This document shows, in pieces, positions 1 to 44,269 of a stretch of DNA of 64,000 nt (positions within the stretch are counted from its first letter, which is position 1; the number at the start of each line of letters is the position of its first letter). The notes under the pieces were generated by a model. The model made no database searches. It was not told where the DNA came from and worked only from the letters and a program-made list of their open reading frames with translations. The position numbers and the translations under genes were made by a program. Source of the DNA: Emydura subglobosa (lineage: Eukaryota > Chordata > Testudines > Chelidae); assembly GCA_007922225.1 (NCBI GenBank), contig ML680037.1, forward strand, positions 2,524,876 to 2,588,875. The letters are read 5' to 3'.

Positions 1-1899
1 GGTCCCAGATCTCGGGCTCCTGCCGTAGCCTGGAAGTCTGCACAACAATGAAACAGCCCTGTGAACCTGAGTTGGCTGGCACGGGTCAGGTGTGGGTTTT
101 TCTTATCCGTACTTAACTTTAAGCATGTACTTAAGTTCCATTGAAGTCAATGGGGCTTCTTTAATACAGCTGCTTTCCTGAAATGGAGGCTTATTTTTTA
201 TCCATTTGCAGCACAGTACATGTGGTTCCCCTTCTTCCCCCTCCTCCTCATCCCCCTCCTTTTCTTTTGCCAAGGCAGCTTTCTGAATAAGTGTTTTATT
301 CTAGAGTAGCTGCAACTAGGGCCAATGAGAGTCTGTCAACATCAGCTCAGGAAGGAGGGAGCAGAGCTAGTCCTGGGAGCATGTGAGCATGCAGGTGCAC
401 ATGGTAATCCCCAAGATTAGTCACGCGACCTCAGTACTTCCCACATGGCAAGAAGCAGTCAGGGAGGGAAACGCTGGGGCCTGGAGACAGAGGTTAGTTA
501 GTGTCTGTAGCAGTAGAGGCCTAATTCCTGCTTCCCTCCTCCTATAGTCTAGAGGAGTGAGGATCTCCTCCCCTAGTTTTGGGGTGGGGAGAGGGAATGA
601 TGTTTCCACAATAGGGAGAATTCCTGGTAAATCTCTCCCCCTCTTAAGATTCAGGGTAGACACAGAGTGAAGATTTCAACACCCTCCCTCCCCACTGCAG
701 TTCTTTCTGATGTAAGTCTCTCTCTCTCTCTCTCTCCCTCACTCCACTGGATGAGAGGCGGAGCAGCAAGAGAACATGTGCAAGGTTTATGGAGGGAAGG
801 GTGATCAGCAGGGGGCATGGGAGGAAAGAAGCAGTAGGGAAGTATATGTATGTGGAGCACAGGATTATGGGGATATGGATATGAGGGAACAATGGGGTGT
901 GAGTGTGTGTGGGGGGGGAGTAGGACCAGGGGAGTATATGTATGAGGGTGGCAGAAATTTGGGTGCAGGCAAATGTGTGAGGGGGGCCGGAATGAATGGT
1001 GGGGAGCGCCAGCGTGGATGAGGGGTTAAAGGTTTGGGAAATGAGTTGATTAGGGTAAGACTTTTCCCTGCACTAGAGACAATGTGTCCGTCTGGGCAGC
1101 TCTCAGACGTCCTACAAAAATATGTAGGAGTAATTTTGATCTTTTAGTGACAAAACTGCTAAGTTTTGAATAGAGTGTATAGATACTATAGAAGGAGGAA
1201 TATTAGAAATAAATGATAGACAGATGAAAATATAAATAGGATTATGTTAGACATTGAGTTGCTTGCTACCAGTCCTGATTTTCATGGCTATTTTGTGGGG
1301 ACACTTAAATAGACTTGAATTCATTGCATTATGATTCATTGCACAGTTGGAATCGCTGATTAACATTACATTGGCCTGTGGCATCCTGTGCTGATGCACT
1401 ATCACATCAGGACAATGTCATGCAGCTGTCATCTCCTGATGACATCATGATACTATAATATTTTCTTGTCAGGCAAGTGAAGGAAGGCAGCCCTCATACT
1501 TGAGCTCAATGTGATAAGGTGGCTATCCTCCTTGAGTCAGCTGTTCCTATGTTCTGAACTTGTAATCCTGACTGTACGTTTATTGCTACATGTGTGTGCG
1601 CTTACATGTCGGAGAGTATGTCAGAAAGTCATAAAACTCACGGGCCAACACTCACAGAAGTTCCATTAGGAAAAGTCTTTGGGAGAGGAATTCGAGACCA
1701 CCAAAAGAGAGAGTAACTAAATGAATAATTAACATGCAACTGGAAAAAAATCACACATTTCCTGCACAAGTCTGGGACTTCAGTAAAGTTTTTATTCTGC
1801 ATATTAAAGCACTGACACTTCATGTCACCCGGGTAAGGTGACCAGTTGTGTCCTACAGGGATGTGCTGTTTGAAGAGCTGGCAGGCTGAGCAATGCTTC
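1..1899. other. Intergenic DNA, no gene seen
   Basis: I see no convincing coding exon here. Short open frames lack splice context and family features. A CT dinucleotide run lies at about 717-737 and a purine- and G-rich stretch at about 780-1020; both are low-complexity. The left end may hold the downstream flank of the minus-strand gene that follows. Confidence 0.6.
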
Positions 1900-1905
1900 T
1901 TTATT
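1900..1905 (-). terminator. Polyadenylation signal overlapping the stop codon
   Basis: On the minus strand the sequence is TGAATAAAG: the final A of the TGA stop is the first A of AATAAA. Used as such, it would give a 3' UTR of only about 15-30 bases. A second AATAAA lies about 110 bases downstream (around 1790-1796) and could be used instead. Confidence 0.5.
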
Positions 1906-4900
1906 CATTTTTTGCTTCCTTTACCACCCATTGCTAAAAGAAAAATAGACATTTATATACACAATAACAACCTTAAATTATGTGTCTTTAAGGTAAAGGT
2001 AATTTATGGAATATAGAGCCTTTGATATCTGATCAGCTGTTCAAAACCTGCCCAGGTGTAACTCTGAAAACTGCTCAGTGACTTACGTAAAATGAGCTGG
2101 AGGCATCAGTCCAGTTTCTAGTGTAGCACAAAACCCACCACCATAATTAGCACCCTGGTTGGCAGTCTCACCAGAAAGGGCAGGTGATGCATGGGCCGTA
2201 GAGAATGAACTACACAGTACTTCCTCACACTAGGACTGGTTCTTCCAGCCAGGTCTGGGCTGAGGTACATTGGCAATGTAGTGAGAAGAAGCTTACACTT
2301 GTGTTAGCCACTTTCTGTGGCTAAGTGAAAATTCCACACCCCGCTCCTACCCTCTCCGCCCCCGAACCAGCAGGGGGATTCCCCTTCCAGGGACCCCCAG
2401 CCAGGGAACCAGGACTCATGCAGTCCCCCAGATTCACTTATATGGGGAGTGGGAGAGAGAAACTCTAGGCAGAATTAGCTCATGGGAGCAAAGAGACCCT
2501 CTCCCCAGCAGGGGCAAGCAGTGGAGGCCATAACAATAGCTGCAACAGCTCCTTTGGAACTTTTAGACAGTGATGTCATTGGACTTTATCTTCTCCTGGA
2601 TGTATCTGGGCAAGTTTTACTCTTTGCTGATTGGCTACTTGCTAAAGACCCTCCCAGTGCTGCAAGTTCACTTTGTGCCTTCCATCCTCCTCTCTATACT
2701 TTCCGTCTTCTTTCCCCCATCAATATTGTCCTTCCCTAACTTGTGAGGCAAACCCTCAACCAGAGCCAGAGCTGCTCATTCAGCTACAACGATTCATCCC
2801 TCCAGCAGAGCTTGCATTGTCTCATCCCTGAGGCATGCTGACGCAGCCTATCCCTGGGCAGGCCCCAGGTCAGATGACCCCACAAGCGCAGTATTTCACT
2901 CTTACCACCAGAGCCAAAAGGTAGTCAGTGCAACAGCACCACTTGGCTAGGAATCTCCTGCAGTCTTGTGGTGTTGCAGACTTCCAAGGCTTCCAGCCTG
3001 TCCTCAATCCTCTCCCTGTTCCTGCCCCAGCTTTCCCCGAGCTTTGTCCATGCCCTATTCTGACTTTGCTCCAGCCCTGCATCCACCTGCTGACCCCCAG
3101 ACCTTTGGACAGATTCCAGCCTGGCTTGGACCTTCGGCCTGCTTCTGGACTCTGACTATGATCCTGATTTGGCTTGCTACGGACTCGGTTCCCCATTCTG
3201 ACCCACAGCCTGCCTCTGGACCCTGGTTTCAGTGCTGCCCTCAGCCCTACATCTGGCTTCGTCATGGTAGCTGGCAGCACAGCTCTACTAAGACTTCTAG
3301 AGATGCTAGCAGCTGGGCTGTGGAAACAGTATTAGCAACAGTGGGAAATTTTACAGATTCCATAGCATGAGTGTGGCCTCATAGAGAAATTATTCCCTGT
3401 TCCAATGTGTTGCCAATGCATATGTAACCCAAAACTCTATTGGACTTTTTTTTCTGCCATAGCAAATATCAAAGTTTGTAATGCAGCCCCAGGCCAGTCT
3501 CAGCATTATGGCTTTCCAGTAGCGTTCCAATTTCTGCTTCTGATTGAAATCAAGTAACAAGCAGTTACTTCAATCGTTCAATGCAGTGGCTTTGCTTAGC
3601 CACACCTGTTCATATGATCACATTTAAAGAAGTATATGTTGACATTTCTGAATGCTCAGTAAAAACTTTGATTTAATTATAAATAATAAGAGGACTTTAA
3701 CTTACAGACAGACTGGACGGTGGCTGTTGTACCGCCCTTTGGTGTTCCTCCTCCATGAGACCGAGCCTCTTGGGACATCATTCCAGATGCCTTAGATCCA
3801 CCGGAGATCCCACTACTGGTGAAACCAGATGAATGGGTTGAGCTTTTGGCACCTGCAACAGTGACAAAGATAGTATTAATGAGATCTCCTGTCTGGAAGG
3901 GGCCTCATCCGACAGTATGGCATTTTAAAGCTATAAAAGACTTAAATTCTATAAAATGTTTCAAATAGGGATATCAAAAATAAATGCAAAGAGATGGATA
4001 GTTACTCATCCCATTCCACCAATATGCAAGAATTTCAGCAATGAGCAACTCTTTTGGCTGCTGCTGTTTCCAGGGTGGAAGGACATGGTCCTATTTAGAA
4101 ACCAAGTCTGTAGCATTTCCATGGTGATGTGGGTGTACCATCTTGAATGGGCCAGTTAATACATCTCTTCTAAGTAGAAGTCCTCAGATCTAAAAGATAA
4201 ACTACAACTCCAGGATGAAGAGGTGGTTAACAACTCCGTTCCTTTAGCTCAATGGAACTTTCTACAATAAAGGACTATGGATCGTCAGAAGCCTCACCAC
4301 CTTCCATTTGCAGTGTAAGGTGCATTTCTTGGACTTTGCATTCTCCAAGATAAATATATAGCAGCATATTTCTCTAAATATATTTTTAAAAATCCAAAAC
4401 AAATCACTCCACTGCACACACTTCTCTCCCTAGGAGTGAGGATGAGAGAACAAACAACATGTGACATGTGTAGTCATGTAGCTTAATGCCCGGCTGGAAG
4501 GTGCTCAAATACCATGGTGAATGCAGTATAAAAACCTATAGTGACTAGAATAGAGTAATACTGAACACTATTCTGATGCTGATACAGACTGAAACGCTCC
4601 TCTGCAAATGTTCATGCTGGGGTAAAGGTGTGTGTGTGTGGGGGGGGGTCTAAAGAGGTCATACCCAGGAGGAAAGGCTAAAAACTGAATTTTATTGAAC
4701 AAGGAATTCCAATGAACACCTGTGCAAGGGAGACTAAAACCTCTCGCTCTCCCCCGGGCAGGCATGGCAAGCTCTACACTGCAGAGAGCCAAGGCAGTCA
4801 CTGACCTTGGTGGCGTTATGGGGCTAATATTTGCACAAGGATAAGTGCTATTCTGGAACATATCCAAAAGGCACAGGTCAGATTTCCTTTAGCATCAGGC

Positions 4901-6468
4901 ACGCATCCTTCTCTTCTCCAGAAATGTGTTTTCCAAAAACACACATTTGATATACTCACTGCAAACCTATACTCTCTGCTAAAGTTTTAGTTCCCTTCTA
5001 TGCCTCTGAATGAATCTCAGCAGATAGAGAGTGATAGGAATTCATTCCTTTGCCTTGCGCTCACCATCCTCATCCTCCCCACAGTGGTCACCATTAAAGA
5101 GTTAACATTTGCCACTGGTTATCACACCAGACTGTGTTTGAGATACCACAGAAGTCACACCCAACATCCAACCGCCACCCTGATTACATCCACTTTCTTA
5201 TTGCTGGGAAAGCCTCACTCCAAACTATGAAGTATCACTATAAGCCATGTCCCTTTCCTCCCCCGCCCTCCCCACAACTGAGTCAATCCCAAATTTTGCT
5301 AATAAAAAAACAACCAAAACTGCATCAGTCAGCCATCACAGGACAGATTAGGTTTTTCACTGTTCTTATATTCAGTTATTATTTTGGAAAGATGCCCATA
5401 TTTTCCTAAGGTATGGAATTGTTAATGGTTTATTTCAGCAGAAGCTGAATGTAATTTCATGGGACAAAGAAAAGGCACTTCAGTAGCATAAGGGCATGCT
5501 CCCTGTCGAATGTCAAAAGCCTGCTGTGAACACTGGAAAGGTGACAGTTTCTCAGACAAAAGGTTAGAAGAATCCTTTATAATGGAAAGTGGTAGGTAAC
5601 CTAAAAATATGGGTTGCTAATATCTCCCACTAAAATATATGTTTTTAAGGGTGCCCCTTGTATGTGAGTGTGTGGTATATATGTAAGTGTCTACAGTTTG
5701 TTAGAATACATATACCATATTTCCCCATGTATAAGATGCTCCCATGTATAAGACGCACCTTAATCTTGGGGCCTGAAATTTGAAAAAAAAGTATTACGGT
5801 AAAAAAAAATCTACAACCACTGTATAAGACGCACCTAGTTTTTAGACCCCAAATTTTTCGAAAAAAGATGTGTCTTATACATGGGGAAATACGGTAGTTA
5901 TCAGGGCACTCACACACACACACAGTGGGCACCCTTAAAATCTTACCACTTCTGGCATCATTTTCAATACTATGGATATTCCCTATCAATAAAATAGAGA
6001 ATTATCACAAATAGAGTTGTCTCAAATCTCATAAATAATGTTTAAATGGGAACTTTTGAAGGGTGTGCGCTGTAGCTCTTTGTATGCATGTGTATACACA
6101 TACATACATAATCGGTTCCATTAACACCTCAGTTATATTGGTCAATCATTTTTACTTCAAGGAAAGTGGTAAGTGAGAAGCAAATATTTGAGAGCTTATT
6201 TTTTAGGGCAGAATTGTATAATCAATATTAGGTTCTTTTTAACCCTCCTTCCTCAGGTGGAGTAGCCTTTTAAAGCCTTTAATTTCTTTTCTATGTAAAA
6301 GAAGAAATTTCAGCTCATACCCATATGCTGCAGGGTAGAAGTAGATCCTCCAGAAGGCACACCTCCTCCATGGTTCCTTGCCTCATTGGACATGATTTCG
6401 GAGCCAACTGAGCCTCCTTTTATCCCATCTGGGGTATAACCAGCACTGTGGACGTTTTCGTCTGACAT
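1905..6468 (-). CDS. Small two-repeat SMP/LEA-like protein, 3 coding exons, 107 aa
   Basis: Exons (minus strand): 6468-6321, 3852-3706 and 1933-1905; both introns are phase 1. The first donor is GTATGAG and the second GTAAGT. The acceptors end in TGTTGCAG and TTTTTCTTTTAG. The ATG has A at -3. The predicted protein starts MSDENVHSAG, ends MGGKGSKK and is Gly/Ser-rich, hydrophilic, with no membrane segment or signal peptide. Residues about 10-48 and 59-99 are homologous repeats: GYTPDGIKGG matches GFTSSGISGG, and MSNEARNHGGGVPSGG matches MSQEARSHGGGTPKGG. The second repeat reads EAR-xx-GG-xx-P-x-GG-xx-A-xx-QS, the spacing of the plant and fungal seed maturation protein domain. I infer a soluble SMP-like protein; the function is unknown. 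Conserved exon repeats, clean splice sites and a TATA-like box argue for a real gene. I do not recognise it as a named vertebrate gene. Confidence 0.75.
1934..3705 (-). other. Intron 2 of the SMP-like gene, with LTR-like DNA
   Basis: This 1.77 kb intron has GT and AG ends on the minus strand. Its middle (about 2330-3370) is C/T-rich and GC-richer than the flanks, with repeated CTG/CCTG-type wording such as tcctgcccc and gactctgac, resembling reptile retroviral-type LTR sequence. The open frames there look accidental. I could not find LTR ends or a target-site duplication. Confidence 0.4.
5643..5940. repeat. Outer inverted repeat enclosing the foldback element
   Basis: TTTTAAGGGTGCCC at 5643-5656 is matched by its exact reverse complement at 5927-5940. 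A TG-rich arm (about 5661-5680) faces a CA repeat (about 5907-5923). The inner element at 5713-5896 sits between them, making a two-level palindrome about 300 bases long. Confidence 0.6.
5713..5896. mobile_element. MITE-like foldback element with ~24 bp terminal inverted repeats
   Basis: The left end reads TACCATATTTCCCCATGTAT; the reverse complement of the right end reads TACCGTATTTCCCCATGTAT. The match runs about 24 bases with one mismatch. The outermost TA could be a TA target duplication, as in Tc1/mariner-type elements. Two further direct copies of TGTATAAGACGCACCT lie inside. There is no coding capacity, so it is a non-autonomous DNA element. Confidence 0.7.
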
Positions 6469-6521
6469 CCTTCCTTCTGCTTTTCTGGACTGAAATGAGC
6501 TCCTGTGTAGAGCTTGTGTCC

Positions 6522-6529
6522 TATAAATA
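6522..6529 (-). promoter_or_regulatory. TATA-like box of the SMP-like gene
   Basis: On the minus strand this reads TATTTATA inside GGGGTATTTATAGG, 54-61 bases upstream of the predicted ATG. Transcription would start near 6490-6498, giving a 5' UTR of roughly 25-30 bases. A focused TATA promoter, unlike the CpG island of ALG2/SEC61B, suggests tissue-restricted expression (inference). Confidence 0.55.
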
Positions 6530-6530
6530 C

Positions 6531-7400
6531 CCCTCTAAGGACTGGCTTCAGTACAGGGGAAGAAACGAAACTTACTTGCTACAGTTTCAATTACTTGAAA
6601 ATGAAACTGATCACAGCTCTGTGAGTCACTTCTGTGATAACTTTTTTCATTGATTATTTTGCTTCACACCCTGATATTACATATGTAAGGAGTGGAGAGT
6701 ATAACTGCATGGCTCCATTCTGTGGCTATATTATTTGTAAAGGGACATACACTAAATGCATAAAGTTATTTTAGCAATTAGGATGCGGGAAAAGTGGACA
6801 GCTCACTCAGCTTCTCTCTCTCCTTGCAACTGCTTTGGAAAGAGATCAGATAAATCCACACTTCACATATGCTGATTTTGTCTGTCTCTGTGTTGTTATT
6901 TGTATTGCAGTAATATTCAGAGGCCCCCATAAGGATCAGGGCTCCTTGTGCTAGGTGTTGTACAAACAGAGTAAAAGACATTCTTTGCCTTGAAGAACTT
7001 TCAACCCAAACTAAGTGTTGGTCTACACAGGGAAGTTTACCAGCAGAACTATACCAGTATAACTCCAGCCCGCTGACCCAATTTTGTTTGAGATTCTAGA
7101 CCCTGACTAGAAAACCCCTAACTCTGGGCAAAAGCAGATCTGGCCTAATCTGTTTATTCCTTCAGGGCTGACTGAGTTCAGATTCTCCAAGAACAATCAT
7201 CACTCAGCTGCTGAGAAATTTAAATAAGGCATCACTGTAGTTTTTATAACATGTTTTAAAACCATTATTTTGCCTGTCAAGAGACCTCTTCAGCTCACAG
7301 TTTAATAACAATTTGTCTTGGGGTTGTCTTCATCAACCTTTTAACTGGGAGCCAAATGCTCTAGCCACTTAAGCTACCATGGATAGTCCCTGTTACCATC
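6531..7400. other. Intergenic DNA with a transposon-end fragment
   Basis: No gene is seen. At about 7017-7045 the sequence TTGGTCTACACAGGGAAG resembles the terminal repeat of the Harbinger-related region whose right end is near 16951-16968 (TTGGTCTACACTGCGAAG read on the minus strand). It is probably a decayed terminal fragment. Confidence 0.35.
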
Positions 7401-13330: not shown

Positions 13331-14353
13331 ATGATACCTTCTTCAATGTGCTGGTGGTGGCTGCCCCAGCGAGGGTGGCCCTACCAGTCCATGACAGGAT
13401 CCTCAAATTGTAAAGGCCCTGTGCAAACCCCTTCCTCAGTTGCCCCTAAGTCGAAGGTAGTCGAGAAAAAGTATTATGCCCCGGACGAAGAGTTCGAGTA
13501 TTTGTTTACTCACCTTGCCCCGGGAACCCTGGTGGTAGATGCAGTCAACCAGAGGGACAGGCAAGGCCAGCCAGGTTCCACTCCCAAGAACAAGGACAGC
13601 AAGAAGCTGGATTTGTTTGGGAGAAAAATTTATTCAACGGCAGCCCTGCAGTTCAGGATTGCCAATCATCAGGCCCTCCTGGGTAGATACAATTTTAATT
13701 TGTGGGACTCCCTCAGGTGGTTTGCTGAAGCCCTGCCACAGGACCAGGCTACAGACTTCACCATCATCCTGGATGAAGGAATCATGGTGGTTAGGGCAGT
13801 GCTCCAGATGTCCAGTGATGCTGCTGACTCGGCGGGTAGGGCCAAAGCCTCCAACATTGCCATGGGGAGGTGCTCGTGGCTGCAATCCTCGGGCCTATCC
13901 CAGGAGGTGCAGCAATCGATTCAGGACCTCCCCTTTGATGGGTCGGCTCTATTCTCTGATCAGACCAATGCAAAGCTGCACAGTCTGAAGGACTCCATAG
14001 CCATGCTTCGCTCCCTGGGCCTGTACATGACCCAGGCTTCCAGGCGGCAGTTCTGGCCCCAGGCGCAGCAGCAGCCAAGGCCTCCATCTAGGCCCTTTCA
14101 ACCCTATAGAAATAGGGACAGTAATAAGGGGTTCAGAAATAGAAATCAACCCCCCAGCTCATCCTCAGCCCCGCAACAGGGGCCCCCCGGGGGGGGGGGT
14201 GTCGGACAACAGTTAATCAGCTCACTTCAGGTGTTTATCCTCCCCAGCCACATGCGTTTCTCCATCTCACGGTGGCTGGCTCCCACTAATGTGTCGAGCA
14301 GACACCCATTGGACTGGGTGGTCACAGTTCCCTGCCTGTCCTATCCTTCCTAG
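13331..14353 (+). pseudogene. DIRS Gag core, LAP2-alpha C-terminal-like
   Basis: About residues 40-215 carry the blocks KKYYAPDEEFEYLF, FGRKIYSTAALQFRIAN, LLGRYNFNLWDSL and ALPQDQ, followed by a basic, Gln/Pro/Arg-rich tail near 14050-14150. These match the family of DIRS-1-like Gag proteins from which the LAP2-alpha C-terminal domain was domesticated (published knowledge, recalled). The core is still open over about 800 bases, suggesting fairly recent insertion. The frame then passes a run of 11 G at about 14189-14200 and ends at 14353 in sequence that no longer fits Gag. It is part of a broken element, not a host gene. Confidence 0.65.
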
Positions 14354-15595: not shown

Positions 15596-15909
15596 AAAAC
15601 TAGGTTACTTACCAGTAACTGATGTTCTTCGAGATGTGTTGCTCATATCCATTCCACAACCCATCCTCCATCCCCGCTGCAGGAGTTGGCAGAAAGAAGG
15701 GACCGAGGAGGTGTAGGGCCAGCAGTGCCTCATATACCATGGCATGCGCGCGGGACTCCAGGGGGCACCAGAGCTGGCCCTATGGGATCTGCTAAGGGGA
15801 AAAAAGTTCTGGGAACCATGCACGGTGGCGTACACTCACCTATAATGGAATGAACATAAGCAACACATCTCAAAGAACATCAGTTACTGGTAAGTAACCT
15901 AGTTTTTCC
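15596..15909. repeat. Foldback formed by two inverted copies of the DIRS terminal sequence
   Basis: ACTAGGTTACTTACCAGTAA followed by CTGATGTTCTTCGAGATGTG begins at about 15599. Its reverse complement, with few changes, ends at about 15905 (CATCAGTTACTGGTAAGTAA). The two arms of about 60 bases enclose about 190 bases. The right end of the DIRS element therefore contains its own internal palindrome in addition to pairing with the left end. Confidence 0.65.
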
Positions 15910-16059
15910 TGGAGATATCCATGGAGGATTCTTGGTGCGTCGCTGTGCACATAAACATTCTTTTCCGGGTGAACTAACAATGAGGAAGCCCATCCCCACC
16001 ATCACACTCATTTTTTTTTCCTGCTGTGACAAGAAGCTGGACTGGGGAAATAGACACAG

Positions 16060-16587
16060 AAATAAGATTTGCAATATAGAGTCACCAGATGTGCCTTTCT
16101 CAGCATCTTGGTCACTCACGGTGTCCTGAGTTTGGCAGGGTTGTCCTGGGGTTAGAAACAGCTCCTGGCTTTCAGGGAGAAGGGATTCCCCAGTCATCTG
16201 GCTCCTGTTTTCCTCCTCCTCCTTGTTCATCCTGGATTCCCCTGAGGTACCTATGCTGCGTGGTGGTACAGTGGTGGGGTCACCACCAAGAATTGCATGC
16301 GGCTCCTTATAAAAATGGCATGTCTTTGGTGATGAGCCAGAACGACTGTTCACCTCTTGAGTTTTCTGATACGCCTGCCTCAGCTCTTTGATTTTAACAC
16401 AGCACTGCTGTGCGTACCTCCTGTGCGCCCTTTCCAACATGTCGTGCAATATCTTTTCGTAAACATTTAAATTCCTTTTGCTGGCTCGGAGCTGAGCCAG
16501 AACAGACTCTTCGCCCCACAGATCGATGAGATCCAAGACCTCTGATCGACTCCAGGCTGGAGCACGTTTGGGGCGTGCAGTCACCAT
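16060..16587 (-). pseudogene. Myb/SANT-like DNA-binding protein of the Harbinger region
   Basis: The ATG at 16587 starts MVTARPKRAPAWSRSEVLDL. It is followed by a Trp-containing tri-helical region (residues about 10-95: LIDLWGEESVLAQLRAS, IHDML-like KILHDMLERA, QCCVKIKELRQAYQK), typical of Myb_DNA-bind_4/MADF-like domains. An acidic, Glu/Ser/Thr-rich linker comes next. Such proteins accompany PIF/Harbinger transposases and bind element ends (family knowledge). After about 16060 the open frame continues to 15880 but stops resembling protein and finally reads into the DIRS terminal repeat, so the native C-terminus is lost or the gene has a further exon. It lies tail to tail with the transposase relic at 10049-10466, which is on the opposite strand. 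Confidence 0.65.
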
Positions 16588-16599
16588 GATCAGTTCTAC

Positions 16600-16968
16600 T
16601 GGCAAGCTCTCTCCACGCTGACAAAACAGGAAATGGGAATTCAAAATTTCCCGGGGTTTGAGGGCAGGGGCTGTTTCCTGTGTACGTGGCTGCAGTGCAG
16701 CAGAATGTGACCGTGCAGAGCGGTCACAGCAGAGAACTGTGGGATAACTCACAGAGGCCAATTACAACGAATTACGCTGTGCTCCACCTACACTGCTGCT
16801 CATTCAACCCAAACAATTCGATTTCAGCACTACGCCACTTGCGGAGGTTTTATTTCATCAAACTTTCCCGCGATTTAAGTTGACAGACCTGACCAGCCAG
16901 TGAAGACACATACATTATGTGGTCGATGGAAGCCTCATTCTGTCGACCTACCTTCGCAGTGTAGACCA
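16600..16968 (-). mobile_element. Right end of the Harbinger-related element (5' region and terminal repeat)
   Basis: Upstream of the Myb-like start the minus-strand DNA ends outward in TTGGTCTACACTGCGAAG near 16968-16951, a terminal motif that recurs near 7017-7045. I infer this is the terminal inverted repeat. The matching left end is not found beside the transposase relic, which is truncated. Confidence 0.45.
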
Positions 16969-41778: not shown

Positions 41779-43664
41779 TTATTGTGTTAATCTACATATG
41801 TATTGATACAGCTGTTCTGTAAATGCTTTTGATGAAAATTTTTCTGAAACTCTGGCTCTTCCAGCTGCTCCCATTGTATTTTTTAAGGCAGGGTCTTTCA
41901 CAAATTTTTCCATGGCCTCAGAAAATCGTGTTGGAAGAGGGTCACACAAAAATCCTGTAACATTATTTATAACAGATTCCAAAGGACCACCTGAATTAAC
42001 TGCTATGACTGGACATCTCATATACATAGCCTCCAAAGGAACTATGCCGAAGTGTTCATTGCTTGGTGTGTAAAGCACACACACAGAGTTATTAAGAAGA
42101 GAGATTTTTTGTTCATCTGTAAAAGACCTCACAAAAGTGACTTGCTCGCTAATATTAAGCTTGGTTGAAATATTCTTTAGCTCTTCATAGTGTTCCACGT
42201 TTTCCAAAACCCTTTCGTCATAACCCCCGGCCAAAACTAAATGAACTTCATTCCACTCTTGAGCATCCAGTCTTCCACGAAGATCATGTAACGCTTCCAG
42301 AGCTAATGCTAGGTTTTTTTTCCTTTCAAATCTATTGATTGAAAGAAACAAATATTTTTTCCCTTTGGGAATTATATTAGCTATATCTGCAGGAACAATT
42401 GTTTCAAAGCTACTGACATGCAATGAAGGGTATAGGACATCTGGTTTAATGTGATTTAAGGTTTTAAATGTATCCCTGAAGACATTTGCTGTAAAATTGC
42501 TGTTGACAACAATGCAATCTGCCATGCCAGTAGTGTACTCTTCCAGCCAGTCAAGCGGAGCTCTATAGATGCGTTTAAGGAAAGATTCTCTCTTGGTCAG
42601 AAGCTGATCAGGAAAGTGACAGTAAAACAAAACCTTCTTATGAGTTCTGGCCAGTCTGAGAATTGGGATACAAGCAGACACCTAGATAAACCAGAGAGGG
42701 AAGGAGAAAATAAGAGAAAATATTATTTAATCCCAGTTTCTACAATAAAATCTATTCTGGAGCTACACCTACAGATTCAAAAACAAAATTTTAACTATGG
42801 GGAAAACGTGGGTGTCTGGTCAGTTTTACCGAATCTGTGTTTACTATTACCGATGGGCTGCTGCAAAGGGTATTTCAGATGACGGCGACAACCCGTCTCT
42901 CATGTACGCTACCAATACGCACACACCAGCAGAGCACCTGATCACAGCACTGTGGTGATGGGTCCCATACACGGGCTTGCACCCGAGCTCCAGCCCCTTC
43001 CTGTGTATGGGGCACACAGCAGCAGCCCTGCCCCAGCTCAGGGCCCTTGTTAACCAGCTCCCCCGATGCCGGGGTCTTCAGGGCTGCCACCCCCCAGGCT
43101 AGCAGGGCTCCTTCCTCCCCACCTGCCAGGTGACGGCCCCGACGGGATGCGGGAAGGCCTGGGGCGGGTGAGGGGCTGCGCCAGGCTGGCGAAGGGGAAC
43201 CCGTTCTTCGCGCTGGGTCCTGCCCAGGAGCTCGGCCCCGGGCTCGGAGCAGCAGGGAGCGGGTCCAGGCTGGGCGCTGCTGCAGGGGAAGCCGCCAGGG
43301 CTGGGCCGGTGTGTCAGGGGCTACCTTCCCCCGCACGCACCTGGTCGCACACGACCACGTCCACCTCCTCCCCGCTCAGCAGCAGCACGTAGAGCGCCAC
43401 GTAGGCCATGCGCAGCGCGGCGCAGAGCGCCTGGGCCCGCCCGAAGAGGCTGCGGGGCAGCCAGTCCCCGGCGCTGCGCACCGCCAGCCCCCGCGTCTCC
43501 GAGAAGCAGCGCGCGGGGTCGTAGTGGGCGGTCCAGATCTGCACGCGGCAGCCGCGCGCCCGCAGCGCCAGCGCCGCATCCACCACCAGCCGCTCTGCGC
43601 CGCCCAGGCCCAGGTCCGGGTGCAGGAACAGCACGGAAGGCCCCGAGTCTGGCCCCGCCGCCAT
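41779..43664 (-). CDS. ALG2: Alpha-1,3/1,6-mannosyltransferase ALG2
   Basis: Two coding exons, 43664-43341 and 42681-41779, joined CAG to GTG across a GTGCGT donor and a TATCTAG acceptor, give 408 residues; the human protein is 416. ALG2 is a GT4-family enzyme that transfers mannose from GDP-mannose to Man1GlcNAc2-PP-dolichol on the cytosolic face of the ER. Visible marks are PSVLFLHPDLGLGGAERLV near residues 9-27 (the N-terminal GGAE loop), a hydrophobic stretch near 85-98, LSINRFERKKN in the C-terminal Rossmann half, AGGYDERVLENVEHY, and the EX7E motif EHFGIVPLE at 317-325. I chose the ATG at 43664 because it has A at -3 and G at +4 and fits the family N-terminus. An in-frame ATG at 43718 would add 18 residues. 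No disruption is seen. Confidence 0.97.
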
Positions 43665-44269
43665 GCTGCCGCGTGCAGCCTCCCTCCAGCCCCGCCCCCC
43701 GCCGGTCACTGCCTTCACAGGCGGCGCGCGGAGGGAAAAGAGGCGGAGCCCGCCTCGTGGGGAAGTGTCAAGTGATCCTCCTAGACCGGCCCAGCAGCCA
43801 CGTGTCCCTGTGCAGCGCGCAGGCGCAGCTCCGCCCCCTGTCTGTGGGGACGGCTAGGGACACATCAGCCTTAAATTAGTCTCTATAGGCCGTAGGTGTC
43901 CTGGCGCTGCCTGCTGCCTTAGCCCGTGCATCCTGCGGTGTCTCTGTTTCAGGCGGGGTTCGGGCAGAGAAAGGGACCAGGACTCTGGCAGCAGGAGCCC
44001 TGGGCTGGGATAGCTGCTCGGGAAACTGTCTCCAACCCTCTCTGAGCAGTCAGGCAGTGCTGTAGTCAACCGCGGGGGGGGCCTGGCAGGAGGCGAGCCG
44101 CCCGTGACGGTCCTGGGGCGGGGCGAGGCAGCTGCTACGCTGGACTTCTGCAGCGGAGCCGGGCCCGGGCGTTCTACTACACTGCAGCCGCAGCGAATTT
44201 TGGAGACTGCAGAGTTCTGATTTCTGAGCCCCGCGCGCGCTTCCCCGCCTCGAGCCCGGAGTCGCTGCC
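43665..44269. promoter_or_regulatory. Bidirectional CpG-island promoter of ALG2 and SEC61B
   Basis: The two start codons face away from each other across 605 bp of GC-rich, CpG-rich DNA. The CpG-rich zone runs from about 43060 to 44720. There is no TATA box. GGGGCGGGGC at 44115-44124 is an Sp1-type GC box. GCCACGTGTC at 43797-43806 contains a CACGTG E-box with the ACGT core used by bZIP factors such as XBP1. The same head-to-head pair exists in human, so the arrangement is old. Confidence 0.85.

What the first reader, a model, noticed from the sequence alone, without database searches (positions are those of the whole stretch)
1900..6530. Unrecognised compact three-exon gene for a 107-residue repeat protein
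Splice signals alone assemble a complete minus-strand gene: TATA-like box, ATG with A at -3, two canonical introns in matching phase, stop and AATAAA. Each exon is too short to stand out as an open frame, so automated calling could miss it. The protein (starts MSDENVHSAG, ends MGGKGSKK) is not one I can name. It lies on the side of ALG2 where TGFBR1 is expected from human synteny.
Basis: partly seen in the sequence, partly recalled or inferred. Interest (0 to 1): 0.85.

Follow-up and report, generated by a model that had tools for sequence, protein, structure and literature searches.

The report
Soluble-type turtle interferon gene (IFI6/IFI27 family)
The small three-exon gene is real but not unrecognised: it is the turtle copy of a gene annotated in birds as IFI6, an interferon-linked antiviral gene, and its one mildly surprising trait is that, unlike the mammalian proteins of that family, it seems to have no membrane-spanning stretch.

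Summary
"Unrecognised" is wrong. Pfam names it Ifi-6-16 (E=1e-20); [quoted passage not shown] Chicken IFI6 (107 aa) is cloned and reported antiviral (PMC10687481, PMC7140832). A perfect ISRE-type site lies 129-140 bases upstream of the ATG, the only one in the window, so interferon control is likely.

What stands out: the family's framework residues are kept, but 14 of 40 domain columns are markedly more polar and none markedly more hydrophobic. No membrane segment is evident. The domain exon is duplicated, and bichir has the same two-repeat form. The same genome carries ordinary hydrophobic family exons on another contig. Bird "IFI6" is therefore probably a separate soluble paralogue, not the counterpart of mammalian IFI6. 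The proposed mechanism (cytosolic dsRNA binding, tuning of MDA5-MAVS signalling) is inferred, about 0.25.

The parts
6597..6608 (+). Perfect ISRE-type site GAAAATGAAACT (reads AGTTTCATTTTC on the gene's strand), 129-140 bases upstream of the ATG
   Evidence: Only match to GAAANNGAAACT in 64 kb; mean 0.17 expected, and 16 of 100 shuffles of the whole window hold at least one, so it is the place that speaks
6562..6608 (.). Cluster of four GAAAC/GTTTC half sites, including GAAACGAAACT at 6562
   Evidence: Densest 60-base stretch among 162 half sites of the window; the next best hold three
6522..6529 (-). TATA-like box TATTTATA
   Evidence: Read directly
6321..6468 (-). Exon 1, coding part (ATG to phase-1 donor): Ifi-6-16 repeat 1
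   Evidence: tblastn 100% at 6468-6319; own-genome Pfam match here
3853..6320 (-). Intron 1, GT-AG, phase 1; holds a short inverted-repeat element at 5713-5896
3706..3852 (-). Exon 2: Ifi-6-16 repeat 2, phase 1 at both ends
1934..3705 (-). Intron 2, GT-AG, phase 1
1905..1933 (-). Exon 3, coding part: end of the protein (SMGGKGSKK, first residue shared with exon 2) and stop
   Evidence: the tail is present in 22 of 25 rows of alignment A1
1791..1796 (-). AATAAA, likely poly(A) signal (another AATAAA at 1900-1905 overlaps the stop)
   Evidence: which one is used is not known

Best explanation
This is a functional, probably interferon-inducible gene of the Ifi-6-16 (IFI6/IFI27/ISG12) sequence family: the turtle orthologue of the gene annotated as IFI6 or IFI27L2B in birds and turtles. 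It arose by duplication of the family's domain exon, and its domain columns are polar where ordinary members are hydrophobic, so that it should make a small, basic, soluble protein rather than a membrane protein. Most likely working: infection or interferon drives IRF/ISGF3 factors to the promoter ISRE; the protein accumulates in the cytosol and limits virus replication, probably by binding double-stranded or viral RNA and tuning MDA5-MAVS signalling. Shown here: gene structure, family, relatives, loss of hydrophobicity, ISRE sequence. Shown by others for chicken IFI6: induction, cytoplasmic staining, antiviral effect. Inferred: interferon control in turtle, solubility, RNA binding and the signalling step. 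The confidence below is for identity, family and polar character; for the RNA/MDA5 mechanism I give about 0.25.
For: Pfam PF06140 E=1e-20 and a match in 41 of 41 aligned relatives. A 99% identical annotated protein in Emydura macquarii. The solved IFI27L1 (2loq; human, recalled) matches the family profile at 7e-8. Exons 1 and 2 end at the same codon position and phase as 4 of 4 ordinary family exons of the same genome. Promoter ISRE and half-site cluster. Chicken IFI6: 324-base CDS, 107 aa, 10.18 kDa, chromosome 2, cytoplasmic staining; overexpression inhibits and knockdown promotes avian reovirus replication; IRF1 and IFN-beta fall on overexpression and rise on knockdown (PMC10687481: section 15, part 1 of section 20, and passages). 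It is among the top 15 genes induced by MDA5 and poly(I:C), and its overexpression restricts H5N6 (PMC7140832, passages); it is among the transcripts most induced by IFN in DF-1 cells (PMC13259848, passages). Human IFI6 binds poly(I:C) and interacts with RIG-I partly through RNA (PMC9923010, passages). pI 9.5 and mean hydropathy -0.66.
Against: No expression data from any turtle. The chicken IFI6 sequence was not fetched: its place in this group rests on length, mass and on peafowl, duck, goose and megapode relatives. Cytoplasmic staining does not prove solubility: transfected human IFI6, a hydrophobic protein, was also described as cytoplasmic. The chicken signalling data are mixed: MDA5 and MAVS expression rise with IFI6 while IFN-beta falls, and several other factors change the same way in both experiments. 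The chicken interferome paper mentions IFI27L2 and ISG12-2 as interferon-regulated but not IFI6 in its main text (PMC4974698, passages), so names may be mixed. RNA binding is known only for the hydrophobic human protein. No structure could be predicted. The ISRE could not be compared with other turtles, and looser GAAANNGAAA sites are common in the window (13 against 4.4 expected).
Confidence: 0.93

Rival explanations
1. It is simply the sauropsid orthologue of mammalian IFI6, diverged under viral pressure, and still works as an ER or mitochondrial membrane protein.
For: Database names. PMC10687481 calls avian IFI6 highly variable and the part similar to IFI27L1 the transmembrane region; the review PMC11545081 states an ER location for IFI6 (passages).
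Against: No hydrophobic segment: best 19-residue mean 0.04 here, against 1.74, 1.86, 1.70 and 1.15 in four ordinary family exons of the same genome; 109 of 109 near-full-length relatives (of 121 fetched) stay at or below 1.05. The protein is 75% identical between turtle and a caecilian, which is not fast evolution. The five hydrophobic members (four turtle, one IFI27L1) form one group apart from the 24 polar repeats (97/94). Human IFI6 itself was not placed on the tree, and the tree has only 40 columns.
Confidence: 0.12
2. It is a decaying pseudogene or a chance splice model with no protein product.
For: No reads were available; very short exons.
Against: Intact relatives with the same two-repeat layout in birds, turtles, crocodile, caecilians and bichir; dN/dS about 0.23 between the repeats; intact splice sites.
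Confidence: 0.01
3. It is an animal relative of plant desiccation proteins (LEA, seed maturation protein, SMP) that works as a protective hydrophilic protein.
For: The polar repeat gives weak SMP hits (PF04927): E=0.017 for this protein; 17 of 41 relatives hit at E<=1, best 0.015; crocodile 0.31. Gly/Ser-rich and hydrophilic.
Against: This protein scores 15.9 bits, under Pfam's cut-off of 22. The four ordinary hydrophobic exons and the bichir protein give no SMP hit. Shared composition could cause it.
Confidence: 0.04

Closest known systems
Bird IFI6 / turtle IFI27L2B-type proteins (for example Emydura macquarii P0001, Pavo P0017; probably chicken IFI6 of PMC10687481)
   Same: Two repeats, same length where complete, same tail where the model reaches it (52 of 109 near-full-length proteins; 53 of the 109 are 98 residues long and stop after repeat 2)
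   Different: Nothing of note; this is the same gene in another turtle genome (one residue differs from Emydura macquarii)
Mammalian FAM14 family: IFI6, IFI27, IFI27L1 (2loq), IFI27L2
   Same: Framework columns G-F-T..G-I...S.A...MS..A...GGGV..G.....Q as seen in 2loq; interferon link
   Different: Described as hydrophobic with putative membrane helices, and 2loq has one matched stretch; this one has two domain copies and is polar throughout
Ordinary hydrophobic Ifi-6-16 exons of the same genome (G000 C20: L001-L004)
   Same: Same domain, same splice position and phase
   Different: Hydrophobic (mean +0.86 to +1.41), on another contig, three of them within about 14 kb
Polypterus senegalus P0112 (database name 'keratin, type II cytoskeletal 2 epidermal-like')
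   Same: 105 aa, polar, two repeats, 52% identity over the whole length
   Different: More diverged; its gene structure and neighbours were not seen

Membership tests
Pfam PF06140 Ifi-6-16 | Score above the curated cut-off (29.1 bits) | tested here: met
   73.8 bits, E=1e-20, two stretches
Pfam PF06140 Ifi-6-16 | Domain exon ending in phase 1, one base into the codon after (L/V)Qxx | tested here: met
   Exons 1 and 2 here and 4 of 4 ordinary exons of the same genome; that this marks the family is our observation, not a published rule
FAM14 in the strict sense (hydrophobic membrane proteins IFI6/IFI27) | Hydrophobic segment(s) able to span a membrane | tested here: not met
   Best 19-residue hydropathy 0.04; usual threshold about 1.6 is recalled. 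One of the four ordinary exons (L004, 1.15) also falls below 1.6 on the exon peptide alone
FAM14 in the strict sense (hydrophobic membrane proteins IFI6/IFI27) | Interferon inducibility | tested here: inconclusive
   Perfect ISRE upstream; no expression data for turtle; chicken IFI6 is induced
Orthologues of bird IFI6 | Two-repeat layout, shared tail, closest relatives in turtles and birds | tested here: met
Orthologues of bird IFI6 | Same chromosomal neighbours | not tested
   No bird genomic DNA was used; chicken IFI6 is reported on chromosome 2
Pfam PF04927 SMP (LEA) | Score above the curated cut-off (22 bits) | tested here: not met
   15.9 bits

The most novel reading that the evidence does not exclude
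Bony vertebrates carry an ancient, slowly evolving, soluble branch of the IFI6/IFI27 family, formed before ray-finned fish and tetrapods split by exon duplication and a systematic switch of hydrophobic domain positions to polar residues (or the reverse switch in the other branch). Birds and turtles use it as a main interferon effector in the cytosol; it is absent or lost in mammals. Bird IFI6 would then be misnamed, and results for mammalian IFI6 (ER or mitochondrial membrane) should not be transferred to it.
Probability: 0.5. Interest if true: 0.5.

Novelty: new variant of a known kind. Interest (0 to 1): 0.33.

Why it matters
The gene as such is already annotated, so as a discovery claim it is ordinary. 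The variant matters because chicken IFI6 is among the most strongly induced antiviral genes in chicken cells and is interpreted through mammalian IFI6, an ER or mitochondrial membrane protein. The sequence says that the turtle and bird protein is unlikely to sit in a membrane in that way, so its mechanism would have to be worked out afresh. It may also be a natural case of a membrane-type repeat turned soluble (or the reverse) with the framework residues kept.

Tried and rejected
The search of the window's genome for the TGFBR1 family (PF08515) did not complete, nor was one with the protein itself; only the PF06140 search was (after one search failed). A scan with recalled TGFBR1 motifs found nothing in the window, 100 kb to the left (L010-L015; L026-L029) or 100 kb to the right (L016-L025, only); motifs across a 10-kb cut would be missed, so the synteny claim stays open. 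The bacterial promoter scan found nothing and says nothing about a vertebrate gene. The plant SMP resemblance stays a lead only; a paper search for the two family names together found none. No paper describing bird IFI6 as a soluble or non-orthologous paralogue was seen among the listings of the ten searches made; the library lacks most subscription journals, and only some listed papers were opened. No mammal or squamate was seen among the named hits (77 of 77 listed, 120 of 138, 16 of 16; some hits carry no species name), but the search needs shared 5-residue words, so this is suggestive only. Hydropathy over relatives used 109 of 121 proteins; 12 were dropped for length or missing start. The tree used 11 of the 121 proteins, the window and five hydrophobic members on 40 columns; repeat 1 was not recovered as one group, and bichir repeat 1 sits oddly on a long branch. 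My first splice join was one base short at exon 2 and gave a wrong tail; one search is right. On checking, I lowered the mechanism from 0.3 to 0.25 and the novel case from 0.6 to 0.5, because cytoplasmic staining was also reported for human IFI6 and the chicken signalling data are mixed.
Full report
Observation. The window was read on the minus strand. Exons 6468-6321, 3852-3706 and 1933-1905 join to a 324-base frame for 107 residues; both introns are GT-AG and lie in phase 1. The TATA-like box is at 6529-6522, the A at -3 is there, and AATAAA stands at 1905-1900 and 1796-1791.

Is it a gene? Yes. The protein scores 73.8 bits against Pfam Ifi-6-16 (cut-off 29.1, E=1e-20). A protein search lists 77 relatives; [quoted passage not shown] So the window comes from a turtle close to Emydura (inference), and the gene has been called and named there already. 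The alignment search lists 120 of 138 hits: mostly birds, with turtles, Crocodylus, two caecilians and the bichir Polypterus, and some unnamed fragments. The claim that it is unrecognised fails.

Anatomy of the protein. Exons 1 and 2 each hold one copy of a repeat of about 40 residues. The copies align over 43 residues with a score that none of 2000 shuffles reaches. Between the copies dN is 0.42 and dS 1.85. Both exons end at the same codon position and phase as 4 of 4 ordinary family exons of the same genome. The gene thus most likely arose by duplication of the family's domain exon. In a tree of 24 polar repeats and five hydrophobic members, repeat 2 forms one group including bichir (95/97) and the hydrophobic members form one group (97/94); repeat 1 is not resolved as a single group, and the root is a midpoint only. 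Repeat 2 holding bichir and tetrapods together suggests that the duplication predates their split.

The striking part. A Pfam scan of the window's own genome gives six places: two are these exons and four are ordinary hydrophobic members on contig C20; the tool says such counts are lower bounds. Column by column, 14 of 40 positions are more polar in window-type repeats by over 1.5 hydropathy units, and none is more hydrophobic by that much (ten polar repeats of five species against five hydrophobic ones). The best 19-residue mean is 0.04 here, against 1.74, 1.86, 1.70 and 1.15 in the four hydrophobic exons. Of 109 near-full-length relatives (of 121 fetched) none exceeds 1.05. The protein therefore has no evident membrane segment. 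Its calculated pI is 9.5.

Control. The perfect ISRE-type site GAAAATGAAACT at 6597-6608 is the only one in 64 kb and lies 129-140 bases upstream of the ATG. The whole window would hold 0.17 by chance and 16 of 100 shuffles held at least one, so it is the place that makes it telling. The looser GAAANNGAAA pattern is enriched over the whole window (13 against 4.4 expected) and is not specific to this promoter. The densest cluster of GAAAC/GTTTC half sites is also here, four in 60 bases, with three as the next best. An ISRE-like site also lies close upstream of a hydrophobic member's exon.

What is known. Chicken IFI6 was cloned: 324-base CDS, 107 residues, 10.18 kDa, chromosome 2 (PMC10687481, section 15). 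Peafowl protein P0017 computes to 10.28 kDa. Transfected chicken IFI6 was seen throughout the cytoplasm, overexpression inhibited avian reovirus, and MAVS, IRF1 and IFN-beta expression shifted (passages and part 1 of section 20). Its overexpression restricts H5N6, and it is induced by MDA5 and poly(I:C) (PMC7140832, passages) and by interferon (PMC13259848, passages). The chicken interferome paper names IFI27L2, not IFI6, in its main text (PMC4974698, passages), so the names in chicken may be mixed. The 2023 paper equates the part similar to IFI27L1 with its transmembrane region, and a review places IFI6 in the ER (PMC11545081, passages). Our sequence result speaks against both for this protein, provided chicken IFI6 belongs here, which was inferred and not tested with its sequence. 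Cytoplasmic staining does not decide: human IFI6 was described so too (PMC9923010, passages).

Mechanism. Human IFI6 binds poly(I:C) and interacts with RIG-I, partly through RNA. Chickens lack RIG-I, so MDA5 is the natural candidate in birds. In chicken cells IFN-beta and IRF1 fall when IFI6 is overexpressed, while MDA5 and MAVS expression rise, so negative feedback fits only in part. I give this mechanism about 0.25.

Against and open. No turtle RNA evidence, no structure, no bird or mammal genomic DNA, no placement of human IFI6, and no chicken sequence fetched. TGFBR1 was not found nearby by motif scan. Glycosyltransferase frames that fit ALG2 are at 41779-42681 and 43314-43718 (the second below Pfam's cut-off), with a SEC61B-like end at about 44933 on the plus strand (recalled motif). 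Weak SMP hits are a lead only.

Verdict. An ordinary, already annotated gene, correctly spotted by eye. It belongs to a polar, two-repeat branch of a family known for membrane proteins, and that branch seems to deserve its own name and mechanism.

Noticed in passing
window 5713-5896: Short element in intron 1 with near-perfect inverted ends (24 nt, 96% complementary) and internal GTATAAGACGCACC copies; looks like a MITE-type insertion.
   Followed up: partly
window about 44933 (+), beside 41779-43718 (-): A SEC61B-like C-terminal coding end lies head to head with the ALG2-like glycosyltransferase gene, as in human (motif and human order recalled).
   Followed up: partly
window 15880-16761 (-): 293-residue open frame with a Myb/SANT-like DNA-binding domain (PF13837, E=1e-15), of a kind multiplied in reptile genomes (recalled).
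   Followed up: partly
window 13331-14353 (+): 340-residue open frame without a Pfam match at E<=0.01; looks gag-like by eye.
   Followed up: no
P0112 (Polypterus senegalus): A database protein named keratin type II is a polar two-repeat Ifi-6-16 protein (PF06140, 65.6 bits).
   Followed up: yes
L004 1701-1711 (same place as L009 about 6102): An ISRE-like GAAACTGAAAC site sits just upstream of the domain exon of a hydrophobic family member on C20.
   Followed up: no
window, 13 sites: GAAANNGAAA is about three times commoner in the window than in shuffles (13 against 4.4, none of 100 shuffles as high).
   Followed up: no
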